Source: Adineta ricciae (lineage: Eukaryota > Rotifera > Eurotatoria > Adinetida > Adinetidae). From it: DNA of 64,000 nucleotides. The translations under genes and the position numbers were made by a program. Of this stretch, positions 14,249 through 54,590 are shown in pieces. Position 1 is the stretch's first letter. Each line of letters opens with the position of its first letter. The stretch is from assembly GCA_905250025.1 (NCBI GenBank), contig CAJNOJ010000035.1:1-64000 (forward strand), read 5' to 3'. Below the pieces are notes generated by a model. It did not search any database and was not told where the DNA came from. It was given only the letters and a program-made list of their open reading frames with translations.

Positions 14249-15755
14249 ATGTTTATCGGAATTACCAAACGTTTTCTAACGCAACAACAAGCATCGTGCA
14301 TCGTTTTTCACCTCAAACTTCGACATGCTTCCTCCTCTGCTGTGTCATCCGCCAAACTAACCTCAAGTTATTTTCACCATTCTTCATCACTTCCATTCGT
14401 CTACAAAACAATCAGTCAAAACTTTGACGAGACTGCTGCCAAATATCCAGATCATGAGTGCTATGTCTTTTCGAGTAAGTTATTCGATCACAACCTTTCC
14501 TAGTCAATCTCGTATTCTGCAGGCGAACAAAAACGATATACTTTCAAGTCATTCAAAGAGGAAGTCGATGGTCTAGCTGCATCTCTTCTCGAACTCGGAT
14601 TCGAAAAGAATGATCGGTTTGCGGTATGGCTACCAAACACCTCACAGAATGTCGCAATGACCTATGCTGCATCGAAACTAGGTCTCATCAAAGTGAGTCG
14701 ATACTGTATTGATCCATGGATTTCTCATGAGAATGATTGTAGGTGAACATCAATCCTGCTTATGTTGGTCGTGAACTTGAGTATTGCATCAACAAGGTGG
14801 GATGCAAAGGCTTGATTTTGCCACCATCGGTGAAAGTGATTCCATCGTTGGACCTGTTTCGAAAGGTAGTTCCTGAACTGGATAGTCACTCGAGATCTCG
14901 TGAGCTGTCGTCGAAAGCGCTTCCGACGTTGAAACACGTGATACTGATAGGCGATGGATCGAAGAGCAGTGGAACTCATTCGTATGATGATTTGGTGAAG
15001 CGCGGAAGTAAACTGTCACACAATAAGCTGGAAGAGCGGCAAGCATCAGTGAATCCCGATTCGGCCGTGGCAATATTTTACACATCGGGCACAACTGGAC
15101 AACCGAAAGCAGCAACGTTAAGTAACTTTGGGATGCTCAATCTAGTGCATGCTCAATGGGAGCACCTTGGCCAGTTCTTCACACGTCTCTGTGTTCCTAT
15201 TCCAATGTTTCACATGTTTTCTGAAATCGTCGGTGTACTAAATGTGGCTGTCGCGAAAGCAAAAGTAATTTTCCCGGCGATTTTACCTGATACTGTTTCG
15301 ACGATGGAAAGTATTCACAAAGAAAAATGTACAGCTCTTATCGGTGCACCGATTATCTTTCGTGATATTTTAACACATCCTGACAAGAACAAATACGATT
15401 TAAGCTCATTGGAATTCTCTGCAATTGGTGCCAGTCCAATGCACCCTAGTTTCTTATCACAGTTAGAGAAAGAAATACCAGTTAAACGTATAGCCCAAGG
15501 CTATGGATTGACAGAAAATTGTGCCATATTGACTAGTGGCATGTGGGCCGGTGATAGTGATCCCAAACGACGTCAAGGATCTCTGGGACGATGTATGCAA
15601 CGGTTAGAAGTCAAAGTAGCTGATGAAAATGGTAATGCTGTACCCATAGGTCAACAAGGTGAGATTTGGGCACGTGGTTACCCGATCATGATGGGCTATT
15701 ATAATGATCCTGAGAAAACAAAAGAAGCACTCACTCCTTCTGGATGGCTTCGAAC
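14249..15755 (+). CDS. ACSF2: ACSF2-like acyl-CoA synthetase, copy B (3' end lost in gap)
   Basis: Three exons are visible: 14249-14474, 14523-14692 and 14743-15755. The product starts with a likely mitochondrial presequence (MFIGITKRFLTQQQ). It has the AMP-binding P-loop FYTSGTTGQPKAATL, a QGYGLTENCA motif equivalent to the YGxTE adenylate motif, and runs to GYYNDPEKTKEALTPSGWLR, just before the expected TGD motif. There it meets a single N (15756), after which sequence jumps back to the middle of exon 2. About 140 C-terminal residues are therefore absent by assembly, not by mutation. The first third and last third of exon 3 are almost identical to copy C while the middle is clearly diverged. 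Confidence 0.9.
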
Positions 15756-15756
15756 N
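15756..15756. other. single-N scaffold join
   Basis: The base before this N belongs to the last exon of one ACSF2 copy and the base after it to the middle of exon 2 of another. The junction is not biological; it marks an unresolved join in a tandem or allelic repeat. Confidence 0.9.
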
Positions 15757-17300
15757 AAGAATGATCGGTTTGCGGTATGGCTACCAAACACCTCACAGAA
15801 TGTCGCAATGACCTATGCTGCATCGAAACTAGGTCTCATCAAAGTGAGTCGATACTGTATTGATCCATGGATTTCTCATGAGAATGATTGTAGGTGAATA
15901 TCAATCCTGCTTATGTTGGTCGTGAACTTGAGTATTGCATCAACAAGGTGGGATGCAAAGGCTTGATTTTGCCACCATCGGTGAAAGTGATTCCATCGTT
16001 GGACCTGTTTCGAAAGGTGGTTCCTGAACTGGATAGTCACTCGACATCTCGTGAGCTATCGTCGAAAGCGCTTCCGACGTTGAAACACGTGATACTGACA
16101 GGCGATGGATCGAAGAGCAGTGGAACTCATTCGTATGATGATTTGGTGAAGCGCGGAAGTAAACTGTCACACAATAAGCTGGAAGAGCGGCAAGCATCAG
16201 TGAATCCCGATTCGGCGGTGGCAATATTTTACACATCGGGCACAACCGGTCAGCCAAAAGCGGCGACACTTACGAATTACGGCATACTCAATTTGGTGCA
16301 TGCTCAATGGGAACTTCTGGGCCAATATTTCACACGTCTCTGTGTTCCTATTCCAATGTTTCATATATTTGCAGAGGTGGTTGGCGTATTGAATGTGGCT
16401 GTTGCGAAAGCAAAAGTAATTTTTCCGGCGATTTTACCTGACACAGTTACAACAATGCAAGCTATTCATAGTGAGAAGTGTACAGCTCTTATCGGCGCAC
16501 CGATTATCTTTCGTGATATATTAATGCATCCGGACAGAAAAAAGTACGATCTCAGTTCGTTAACTTTTGGTGCTCTAGGAGCAAGTCCGATGCATACAGA
16601 CTTCTTAGCACAACTGGAAAAAGAAATACCAATTGGACGTGTGTCTCAAGGTTATGGTATGACAGAAAACTCAGCTCTTATGACGAGTGGTATGTGGGCC
16701 GGTGACAGTGATCCCAAACGACGTCAAGGATCTCTGGGACGATGTATGCAACGGTTAGAAGTCAAAGTAGCTGATGAAAATGGTAATGCTGTACCCATAG
16801 GTCAACAAGGTGAGATTTGGGCACGTGGTTACCCGATCATGATGGGCTATTATAATGATCCTGAGAAAACAAAAGAAGCACTCACTCCTTCTGGATGGCT
16901 TCGAACTGGTGACGAAGCTAAAATGGATGAAGATGGTTATCTGTATTACGTAGGTCGTCAAAAGGAAATGATCATTCGTGGCGGTATCAATATCTATCCC
17001 GTGGAAATTGAAAACACTCTTATCGAACATCCAAGTGTTGCCGAAGCACAAGTCTTTTCGATTCCTGACGAACGATATGGTGAAGAAGTGTGCACATGGA
17101 TCAAACTGAAACCGAATGCACCGACATGCACAGTCAATGATATTACTAAATTTCTATCGGACAAACTTGCATTCTTCAAGATTCCGAAACATATTCGTTT
17201 TGTAGATAAATTCATAATGACACCGACGGGCAAAGTGCAAAAGTTCAAGTTATCGGAAGTGATGGTTGCCGAGTTAAAGGAAGTGAAGTCAAAGAAATAA
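15757..17300 (+). CDS. ACSF2: ACSF2-like acyl-CoA synthetase, copy C (5' end lost in gap)
   Basis: This starts inside exon 2 (KNDRFAVWLPNTSQNVAMTY) directly after the N. Exon 2 ends at 15843, followed by a 50-nt intron identical to that of copy B, then exon 3, 15894-17300, to a normal stop. It holds the full catalytic core: FYTSGTTGQPKAATL, QGYGMTENSA, LRTGDEAKMDEDGY with the conserved Asp, YVGRQKEMIIRGG, and the C-terminal PTGKVQKFKL with the adenylation lysine. Human ACSF2 has the same order of motifs. Together with copy B's 5' part it could be one gene or two; the flanks alone prove at least two loci (A, and B/C). Confidence 0.93.
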
Positions 17301-20122: not shown

Positions 20123-20396
20123 CATTCATCTTTTCTTCATTTGGACTATGTTTTATACATATTTGAGTAGATGAGCGACCTCTTTCTCGTCACTTTGTAT
20201 ATATTGATTAGATTATTTTTAAAATTCACTCGGAAAAAATTCATCGAGAACCTACTGTACATCTTTTCGGATATCTGTTGACAATAATCAATGTCGTCTG
20301 TGTCCTTTGTTCCGCAGTCTTTCTAAAACATTACTTACTTGTTCAGTTCAGTCGACTTTTACGTGCACATTCTGTTCTCCATTCATTCAAACCATC

Positions 20397-21200
20397 ATGT
20401 CGAAATCATCTTTAATTCCTCTGGATTTCTTTCTCGATATGTGTCCATTTGATCTTTATTCGAAAACTGGCCCATCAATTCCATCATGTAATCCAGCGAT
20501 TGCTCCAGATATTTCAATGATCCACGGAATGAATCTATCCACAATGAATAATAATAACACAACTACATGTTTTGAATCTCAAACGAATCATCCAATGTTA
20601 AACGGTGAACTGCTACTTTCCTATTGTCCGTCGACGTCATTAAACATTCCTTATGCAACTGAAACAAGTAAATCAACTCCATCATTGATACCTTGTGCTT
20701 TAACACAATCCTGTTCATACCATAATAATTCTCAATCGACAATACAATTATGTAAACGTGTTAATGAATATCTCGATGATATCATTCGTTTATTGATTCA
20801 TATGGATACAAGTTCAGATCGACGAATGCATAATATAAATAATCTTTTGAAAAATATTCAATTCATTGTTGAACGTTTTATAATCATTCAACAAAAAATA
20901 ATTAAACCATTGAATGATTCTTCAAGTGACATGCTAAAATTAAACATGTTGATTCGTTCGTTAAATAACCCATCGAATCAAAATCATGCCAATAATGCAA
21001 TCTATTTGGATCATCGTTTACATGAAGAATTCGTTTGCGTATTGAAACAACTTGTGCGGTTAATTGATGCGTCACGTTTATCTCTGGGAAATACAAATAT
21101 AAATTTACAAGAGAAACTTGATGCTATTCATGAACAAACCAATTCTATGCACGAACATCTTGTAACAATAACACGAAAACTTGAAACGAATATTATTTAA
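20397..21200 (+). CDS. unknown helical protein upstream of MCM4
   Basis: This is a single open frame of 267 residues from ATG 20397; an upstream extension has no ATG. I do not recognise it with confidence. The first 130 residues are low-complexity, rich in Ser, Thr, Asn and Pro. From about residue 120 it is predicted helical: a block starting CKRVNEYLDDIIRLL, a second (NNLLKNIQFIVERF) and a C-terminal heptad-like helix (INLQEKLDAIHEQTNSMHEH) ending at the stop. The helix order loosely resembles Mediator subunit MED30 but without diagnostic identity. An AATAAA lies directly at the stop and the MCM4 ATG follows 73 bp later. Confidence 0.7.
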   Translation: MSKSSLIPLDFFLDMCPFDLYSKTGPSIPSCNPAIAPDISMIHGMNLSTMNNNNTTTCFESQTNHPMLNGELLLSYCPSTSLNIPYATETSKSTPSLIPCALTQSCSYHNNSQSTIQLCKRVNEYLDDIIRLLIHMDTSSDRRMHNINNLLKNIQFIVERFIIIQQKIIKPLNDSSSDMLKLNMLIRSLNNPSNQNHANNAIYLDHRLHEEFVCVLKQLVRLIDASRLSLGNTNINLQEKLDAIHEQTNSMHEHLVTITRKLETNII

Positions 21201-50953: not shown

Positions 50954-52502
<1,549 letters not shown>

Positions 52503-52694: not shown

Positions 52695-53978
52695 TCAGCA
52701 GTCCGATTCGTTGGACGCTTTTGGCCTTCTGTTAGTTTGATCAGCATTATCAGAATGTATGTCAAATTCGAACTTTCGTTTGGAAGAACTGAATAGTTTT
52801 TTTCCATGGATAAACAGTCCGTTAGCTAAAGTAACGATAAATTTGCGTTCGAATATTTGCTCACGCCAACGTTCGGGAATTTTATCGATACCGTACGCTG
52901 CTCCAGCAAGTTGACCATATATGGCGGCTGTCGTATCGGTATCATCACCTAAATTAACAGCGGCCAGTGCACCTTTTTCAAAAGAACATTCGTCATTATA
53001 AAATGCCCACAAAGCTGCTTCTAATGAGTTCAGAATAAAGCCTGTTCCACGAATACCATCCTCGTACCCTTTCTTCTCTTTATAAGAGCCTTTGACGATC
53101 CTCATGACATCAGCATCGAGTGGTGGTGAAAATTTATTCTGATAAGATTTCGGATCTAGAAGTTCATCTTTTGAGTGACCATGAATCGCCTTCCAAATGA
53201 GTGCAGAATAGAATCGACACGCATCACTAGCTCTTTTATCTCCATGGGTGAGAGTTGCACTAGAACCTGCTTTTTGAATAGCATCAACTTCCGAACAGTG
53301 GTAAAATAAAGGAACTGGTGCTAAGCGCATTAATGGCCCATTACCAGCAGCTTTTGGATCACCACAGTTTACATCTAATTTTATTTCCGACAATTGTGTT
53401 TGGTCTAAACGATCTATAGAGCCATCTGAGGGTGATATACCTAAATTTTTCGCACACTGGCGCTGACGCTTTTCGAATGTTGTTATTGCATCACGTGTGG
53501 CTTGCCCAATATCAAAGCAGTTTCCCGTTGATGACATATAACCTCTTCTATACCACCACTTATATCGTACTAACTGATCGTAAGCATCGAAGCCATCTTT
53601 AACAATAAAGCTAGCAGCCAGACAGAGTGCCATTGATGTATCATCCGTCCATTTTCCTGCTTCCAAACCCCACGTCCCACCGCCTTGTATGTCAGTGACA
53701 CGATTGCTTTTCATGTACGAGTAAGATCGAAATTCAACTGCTGCTCCAAGTGCATCACCAACAGCAAGACCGAGTAAAGAACCTTGAATTCTCGAAAGCG
53801 TTGCGTCATCATCGTTTAACTTGGATAATTCTTCGTCCTGAAGACGATCATATTCTTCGTAGGGTTGCTTTTCGTCCAATAGCTCAGTTAAAGACACTGA
53901 TTTTGTATTCTTTGGTTGTGTACAAGTTGACATCATGTTTTGCATCGATGAGAATATAGTGGTAAGAAATTTAGCCAT
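52695..53978 (-). CDS. ADP-ribosylglycohydrolase (DraG/ADPRH family), intronless
   Basis: Enzymes of this family remove ADP-ribose from proteins or small molecules using two Mg2+ ions. The frame is one uninterrupted exon of 427 residues from ATG 53978. Family motifs are GLAVGDALGAAVEF, WTDDTSMALCLA (metal-binding TDDT), SSTGNCFDIGQATRDA, AGNGPLMRLAPVPLFY and NLGDDTDTTAAIYGQLAGA (second metal-binding Asp set). All are intact, so it should be active. The pattern, especially GKWTDDTSMALCLA and GNGPLMRLAPV, resembles bacterial and fungal members more than animal ADPRH or ADPRS. The N-terminal 65 residues and C-terminal 40 are extra and low-complexity. No intron over 1.3 kb is unlike the neighbouring genes, whose introns occur every 100-250 nt. 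Confidence 0.93.
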   Translation of the reverse strand: MAKFLTTIFSSMQNMMSTCTQPKNTKSVSLTELLDEKQPYEEYDRLQDEELSKLNDDDATLSRIQGSLLGLAVGDALGAAVEFRSYSYMKSNRVTDIQGGGTWGLEAGKWTDDTSMALCLAASFIVKDGFDAYDQLVRYKWWYRRGYMSSTGNCFDIGQATRDAITTFEKRQRQCAKNLGISPSDGSIDRLDQTQLSEIKLDVNCGDPKAAGNGPLMRLAPVPLFYHCSEVDAIQKAGSSATLTHGDKRASDACRFYSALIWKAIHGHSKDELLDPKSYQNKFSPPLDADVMRIVKGSYKEKKGYEDGIRGTGFILNSLEAALWAFYNDECSFEKGALAAVNLGDDTDTTAAIYGQLAGAAYGIDKIPERWREQIFERKFIVTLANGLFIHGKKLFSSSKRKFEFDIHSDNADQTNRRPKASNESDC

Positions 53979-54254
53979 AGAAAATGTCTTTATTTTACTT
54001 TTCTTCCTGTGTCGTTTGTGAAAAATGTGAGCTTCAAAAAAAACATTGCAAAAGAAACGCAAGCAACGCGTGTTTCATTCTCTTCTCGAGAATATAATCT
54101 TTCGGAAGAACAGGTGAATTTGTTTCCTCTATAAAGAGCGTTTGACTACCAAATGATCGATCAAGCCTAGTAGAAATGCGTTTTAAGATAGAATTTCAAA
54201 AGCAATCTGATTTATTTCTATGAAAATATTGTTTATTGAGTAAAAACAAGTGAA

Positions 54255-54590
54255 TTACGACAAATCGAAGTCAAAAAAGAAATACGCTGCAGCCACCCAT
54301 ACCGGTGATGGAGCATTATAGATTTGGCAAAGTCTCAAGAAGTTACTGTCACGAACTGTACCATCATCGTCAACCTTTCCAATCGTAATAAATCTGCTAT
54401 CGCGCACCGTTCCATCATCCTCTACTTTGCCAACCATCATCCCCATAGAATTCCTAACTGTGCCATCTCTTTCAATGTTGCCTACATTAGTATACGTTGC
54501 ATTGTAGACAGTTCCATCACAATTAATTTGACCTAATCGGACTCCTGATGCATTGTAGACACTTCCATCACTGTTGATGCTGCCTGGCAT
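54255..54590 (-). CDS. five-repeat beta-flower-like protein, intronless
   Basis: A 111-residue single-exon frame built from five perfect-length 17-residue repeats, starting at residues 3, 20, 37, 54 and 71. The repeat core is G-x-[IV]-x-x-D-G-[ST]-V-[YR]-[ND]-[AS], for example GQINCDGTVYNATYTNV. After residue 87 comes a 24-residue tail ending in an aromatic/hydrophobic stretch (VWVAAAYFFFDFDLS). Repeats of this type are known from bacterial proteins described as five-fold beta-flower; I know no animal function. There is no signal peptide. It shares strand and intronless structure with the ADP-ribosylglycohydrolase 277 bp downstream, which hints at a shared origin. Function unknown. Confidence 0.8.
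   Translation of the reverse strand: MPGSINSDGSVYNASGVRLGQINCDGTVYNATYTNVGNIERDGTVRNSMGMMVGKVEDDGTVRDSRFITIGKVDDDGTVRDSNFLRLCQIYNAPSPVWVAAAYFFFDFDLS

What the first reader, a model, noticed from the sequence alone, without database searches (positions are those of the whole stretch)
52695..54590. Two adjacent intronless, bacterial-looking genes: ADP-ribosylglycohydrolase and a 5 x 17-residue beta-flower protein
Almost every gene here is cut by short introns, yet this 1.9-kb stretch holds two same-strand genes with none. One is a DraG-type hydrolase with all metal-site motifs intact and a bacterial/fungal-like pattern. The other has five exact 17-residue repeats of a kind I know only from bacteria. 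Together they look like one horizontal acquisition, kept intact. The pairing of an ADP-ribose eraser with a repeat protein is not a combination I know in animals and could be a functional unit.
Basis: partly seen in the sequence, partly recalled or inferred. Interest (0 to 1): 0.75.

Follow-up and report, generated by a model that had tools for sequence, protein, structure and literature searches.

The report
Two bacterial-type genes, rotifer-like genome
Two neighbouring genes in a genome that looks like a bdelloid rotifer's appear to come from bacteria, an ADP-ribose-removing enzyme and a small 'beta-flower' repeat protein, but nothing shows that they arrived together or work together, so this is one more case of the gene capture these animals are known for.

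Summary
Both genes are real. ARH (52695-53978, minus) is a full ADP-ribosylglycohydrolase with an intact metal site, closest to bacterial Tri1/Thermus-type enzymes (50-55% identity over the domain) and far from animal ARH1/ARH3. In a 32-row tree it sits among bacteria, beside Bacteroidota (86/76). The 111-aa protein (54255-54590, minus) is a Pfam Bflower_2 member with a confident beta-flower model; its closest relatives are secreted-looking Bacteroidota proteins, whose signal peptide and first strand it lacks. Neighbouring genes are animal-type, some with short introns, so the pair looks integrated in the host.

Corrections: (1) the five units are exact only in length; (2) 'no introns' is unproven: ARH has a 22-residue insert, absent from relatives, matching an in-frame 66-nt GTATAT...TAG stretch that may be an intron; (3) in published bdelloid genomes about 21-25% of genes are single-exon (three of four species) and 6-9% foreign with phylogenetic support; (4) no bacterial operon: of 69 ARH and 74 beta-flower loci none holds both, and the beta-flower gene has its own AATAAA. 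Horizontal origin is well supported; a joint acquisition or functional unit is not. Organism, expression and substrate were not tested.

The parts
52695..53978 (-). ARH: ADP-ribosylglycohydrolase gene, 427 aa, Tri1/DraG-like
   Evidence: open frame; Pfam PF03747 3e-73; model pLDDT 86; Foldseek top hit Tri1 6dre
53634..53651 (-). WTDDTS metal-site motif (residues 110-115)
   Evidence: D112, D113, S115 invariant in 22 relatives; checked
52932..52949 (-). GDDTDT metal-site motif (residues 344-349)
   Evidence: G344, D346, D348, T349 invariant in 22 relatives; checked
53375..53440 (-). possible in-frame 66-nt intron (GTATAT...ATTAG), or a real 22-residue insertion (residues 180-201)
   Evidence: absent from bacterial relatives; splice-like ends and size; +5.5 bits when removed; low confidence in the model there, pLDDT 67-69
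54255..54590 (-). beta-flower protein gene, 111 aa, Bflower_2 family
   Evidence: open frame; PF21785 2.5e-20; model pLDDT 85
54330..54584 (-). five 17-residue petal units (residues 3-87)
   Evidence: units listed; strands
54276..54305 (-). C-terminal hydrophobic helix (residues 96-105), matching the W..AA..FFF tail of bacterial relatives
54232..54237 (-). AATAAA, 17 nt after the beta-flower stop, between the two genes
   Evidence: sequence
51095..52501 (+). convergent host gene (GDP-mannose dehydratase-like) with seven introns of 50-61 nt; context, not part of the pair
   Evidence: introns located and exons joined

Best explanation
Two separate host genes, each captured from bacteria (Bacteroidota the likeliest donors) and kept as coding genes. 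ARH encodes a metal-dependent hydrolase that removes ADP-ribose from proteins, most likely from arginine as its Tri1 and DraG relatives do; in the animal it would erase marks set by the host's own or by bacterial ADP-ribosyltransferases. The other gene encodes a small beta-flower module without the relatives' secretion signal, so it probably acts inside the cell, perhaps binding lipid or protein as the structurally related Tubby domain does. They are neighbours through insertion history, not an operon. Shown: families, intact metal site, bacterial affinity, host neighbours. Inferred: expression, substrate, location, donor, separate arrival.
For: ARH: 195 bits to Thermus ARH and 189 to Tri1 against 65 to human ARH3, ARH1 not listed; 50-55% identity to bacterial proteins; within a bacterial group at 96/98, beside Bacteroidota at 86/76, clade with ARH3 rejected at p 0.034; structure nearest Tri1. 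Beta-flower: PF21785; best relatives in Bacteroidota; rare or absent above cut-off in two other phyla sampled; Tubby-like 1zxu, prob 0.91, TM 0.58. Protein-level conservation: 45 of 71 codon pairs for residues shared between units differ synonymously. Host setting: intron-bearing gene 193 bp away; G+C 41-43% against 39% in that gene's exons. Not an operon.
Against: The ARH branch is long (1.91) and donor support is modest; eukaryotic sampling is two human proteins. No RNA or proteomic evidence. Most beta-flower loci have only 1.5 kb on either side, so distant linkage could be missed. Arginine specificity rests on relatives. Both genes point to the same phylum, which a single transfer would also give. 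Foldseek E-value for 1zxu is 0.13.
Confidence: 0.6

Rival explanations
1. One transfer of a contiguous bacterial fragment carrying both genes, now working as a pair.
For: Same strand, 276 bp apart, both bacterial in affinity; ARH places beside Bacteroidota and beta-flower relatives are Bacteroidota; four genomes hold both families.
Against: No locus of 69 ARH and 74 beta-flower loci holds both; different contigs in the shared genomes; AATAAA between the genes; ARH relatives occur widely without beta-flower.
Confidence: 0.12
2. The genes reached this genome through another eukaryote (fungus, protist, other animal), or are old eukaryotic genes lost elsewhere.
For: Eukaryote sequences other than two human proteins could not be searched; a weak match of the 111-aa protein to DUF3659 (0.0081, below cut-off), a family I recall as fungal.
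Against: ARH is nested among bacterial proteins; beta-flower keeps the tail of bacterial secreted relatives.
Confidence: 0.2
3. Assembly artefact or bacterial contamination, or dead insertions.
For: No RNA evidence; the beta-flower frame lacks its signal peptide and first strand.
Against: 193 bp from an intron-bearing host gene, G+C near that of host exons, both frames open with conserved residues kept.
Confidence: 0.04

Closest known systems
Tri1 ADP-ribosylarginine hydrolase (NCBIfam NF041672; PDB 6dre, 6drh) and Thermus ARH (2cwc)
   Same: Fold, metal-site motifs, best structural and among the best sequence matches
   Different: 263 bits against a Tri1 cut-off of 490; own 60-residue N-terminal extension without relatives; no partner toxin gene seen next to it; 22-residue insert or intron
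DraG and Listeria Lmo0067 ARH-type immunity protein (2woc, 8za7)
   Same: Same family and fold
   Different: 23-26% identity; more distant than Tri1
Animal ARH3 and ARH1
   Same: Same superfamily; equivalent metal ligands
   Different: 65 bits for ARH3, ARH1 not listed; not sister in the tree
5-fold beta-flower proteins (Pfam PF21785, clan CL0395 with Tubby; Durairaj et al. 2023, PMC10584680)
   Same: 17-residue petals with DG turns, C-terminal hydrophobic helix, fold
   Different: No signal-like segment, first strand missing, units more diverged, in an apparently animal genome

Membership tests
ADP-ribosylglycohydrolase family (PF03747) | Profile match over the curated cut-off, full length | tested here: met
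   247.4 bits against 26.2, positions 1-287 of 287
ADP-ribosylglycohydrolase family (PF03747) | Two metal-site motifs (TDD and DxDT) | tested here: met
   T111, D112, D113, D346, D348, T349
ADP-ribosylglycohydrolase family (PF03747) | Hydrolysis of protein ADP-ribose | not testable with these tools
   needs an enzyme assay
Tri1 (NF041672) | Equivalog score cut-off | tested here: not met
   263 bits against 490
Tri1 (NF041672) | Encoded beside its ADP-ribosyltransferase toxin | tested here: inconclusive
   the identified neighbours are a GDP-mannose dehydratase-like gene and the beta-flower gene; no transferase domain in the reading frames scanned, but the neighbourhood was not scanned completely
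Bflower_2 (PF21785) | Profile match over the curated cut-off | tested here: met
   72.8 bits against 38, positions 13-111 of 112
Bflower_2 (PF21785) | Beta-barrel of short hairpins with a C-terminal helix | tested here: met
   ten strands of 3 or more residues and helix 96-105, pLDDT 85; prediction only
Bflower_2 (PF21785) | N-terminal signal-like segment and first strand, as in the bacterial relatives (not required by the Pfam entry) | tested here: not met
   match begins at profile position 13; alignment; no petal-like exon seen by eye upstream
Bacterial operon of ARH and beta-flower | The two genes adjacent in bacteria | tested here: not met
   no locus with both among 69 and 74; most beta-flower loci have short flanks

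The most novel reading that the evidence does not exclude
An animal has taken over an immunity-type (Tri1-like) ADP-ribosylhydrolase from bacteria as a cell-autonomous antidote to ADP-ribosylating toxins, next to an intracellular version of a secreted bacterial beta-flower protein.
Probability: 0.1. Interest if true: 0.65.

Novelty: new member of a known kind. Interest (0 to 1): 0.3.

Why it matters
It adds a probably foreign ADP-ribose eraser to a bdelloid-like animal; in Adineta vaga, ADP-ribosylation is reported among the processes enriched in genes raised by desiccation (PMC10809525). It also gives a apparently eukaryotic member of the beta-flower fold, described in 2023 mainly from bacteria. 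If the 66-nt stretch is an intron, it is a small, testable case of intron gain after transfer. For the field as a whole it is one more foreign gene pair in animals known for them.

Tried and rejected
Own-genome search: no genome is held for the window. Beta-flower relatives in viral contigs and phages: none; one plasmid hit, Prevotella. Solved-structure sequence search with the 111-aa protein: only chance repeat matches. Joint bacterial operon: looked for in all fetched loci, none. A single donor order for both genes looked possible, but the best beta-flower relatives then came from genomes outside that order's list, so only the phylum is shared. The first, 51-row tree left the gene unplaced amid very long branches; the 32-row tree, built with the 22-residue insert left out, replaced it. 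Chance level of the intron coincidence: 8% of codon shuffles give such a stretch within 15 nt of these bounds. A first exon upstream of the beta-flower gene: none evident by eye. Literature: no held paper has both 'bdelloid' and 'ADP-ribosylglycohydrolase', or 'bdelloid' and 'ADP-ribosyltransferase'.

Full report
What is there. The stretch holds two minus-strand open frames, 52695-53978 (427 aa from the ATG) and 54255-54590 (111 aa), 276 bp apart. Pfam assigns the first to ADP_ribosyl_GH over the whole profile (3e-73) and the second to Bflower_2 (2.5e-20). The surroundings are those of an animal: a GDP-mannose dehydratase-like gene (named from my own knowledge of that family) with seven introns of 50-61 nt ends 193 bp from the ARH stop, and nuclear-receptor, FYVE, BTB, PLAT, DHHC, PCNA, rhodopsin-type receptor and BAF250 domains lie elsewhere in the window. 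The organism is inferred, not tested; the intron size fits the medians of 55 and 58 bp given for Adineta ricciae and A. vaga (PMC5916493).

ARH. The metal-site residues are intact. Among solved structures the sequence scores 195 bits with a Thermus ARH, 189 with Tri1 and 65 with human ARH3; ARH1 is not listed up to E 10. The predicted structure (mean pLDDT 86) is closest to Tri1, then the Thermus enzyme, then the Listeria immunity protein, then DraG. Bacterial relatives reach 50-55% identity over about 300 residues. In a 32-row tree with human ARH3 (sequence recalled and confirmed against PDB chains) the gene lies in a bacterial group (96/98) beside Bacteroidota (86/76); a clade with ARH3 is rejected at p 0.034. 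Its branch is long, so the donor placement is tentative. It does not reach the NCBIfam Tri1 cut-off (263 against 490 bits), so it is not filed as Tri1; that it works like these enzymes is an inference from fold and active site.

Introns. Relative to the bacterial proteins the frame carries a 22-residue insert (GISPSDGSIDRLDQTQLSEIKL) that coincides with an in-frame 66-nt stretch beginning GTATAT and ending ATTAG. Of three frame-preserving GTA...YAG stretches in the gene it is the only one whose removal improves the fit to a bacterial profile (+5.5 bits; the others lose about 33). Codon shuffles give such a coincidence in 8% of cases, so this is a lead, not proof. In three of four published bdelloid genomes 21-25% of genes are single-exon, so intronlessness says little about origin.

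Beta-flower. The bacterial relatives carry a signal-like N-terminal segment, often ending in AQ, then the petals and a W..AA..FFF tail. The window's protein starts near the end of the first petal strand, without a signal, and keeps the tail. The model shows ten strands of three or more residues and the terminal helix (pLDDT 85). Foldseek lists the Tubby-like 1zxu (prob 0.91, TM 0.58, E 0.13), in line with the clan named by the family's authors (PMC10584680). The five units are equal in length but share only 4-12 of 17 residues; 45 of 71 codon pairs for shared residues differ synonymously, which points to conservation of the protein, though part of it may predate the transfer. The family passes its cut-off in 61 of 87 genomes of one Bacteroidota order, in 8 of 247 sampled across the phylum, in 1 of 200 in the phylum of Pseudomonas and in none of 199 in that of a Clostridiales genome. 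In the class of the first order, 75 of 395 genomes match the window's own protein.

Are they a pair? Of 69 loci with ARH and 74 with beta-flower (some are refetched places) none holds both. G002, G004, G781 and G805 hold both families on different contigs. An AATAAA follows the beta-flower stop by 17 nt, which suggests a 3' end of its own. I find no support for a joint unit; loci of 3-19 kb and fragmentary genomes leave some room for distant linkage.

How it most likely works. ARH is inferred to remove ADP-ribose from proteins, probably from arginine, in the cytosol. In A. vaga, ADP-ribosylation is among the processes enriched in genes raised by desiccation (PMC10809525); this gives such an eraser a plausible setting, but no link to this gene is shown. 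The beta-flower protein is read as an intracellular binding module by analogy of fold only.

Verdict. Two captured genes that are ordinary by bdelloid standards (6.2-9.1% of genes with phylogenetic support); one belongs to a family that I do not know from animals, a point that could not be checked here. Interest 0.3.

Noticed in passing
window 14743-17297 (+): Two long adjacent frames that both match AMP-binding enzymes and are 90% identical over 341 residues: a recent tandem duplication, perhaps partial.
   Followed up: partly
window 20223-21197 (+): A 325-residue open frame (stop to stop) with no Pfam match.
   Followed up: no
L034 3896-5948; L005 5977-7931: Tandem pairs of divergent ARH genes in a Rhodothermus plasmid and a Bacteroidetes genome.
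   Followed up: no
order of G004 (87 genomes), for example L095, L103, L113: Up to six beta-flower genes per genome, some in tandem: an expanded, secreted-looking family in one Bacteroidota order.
   Followed up: no
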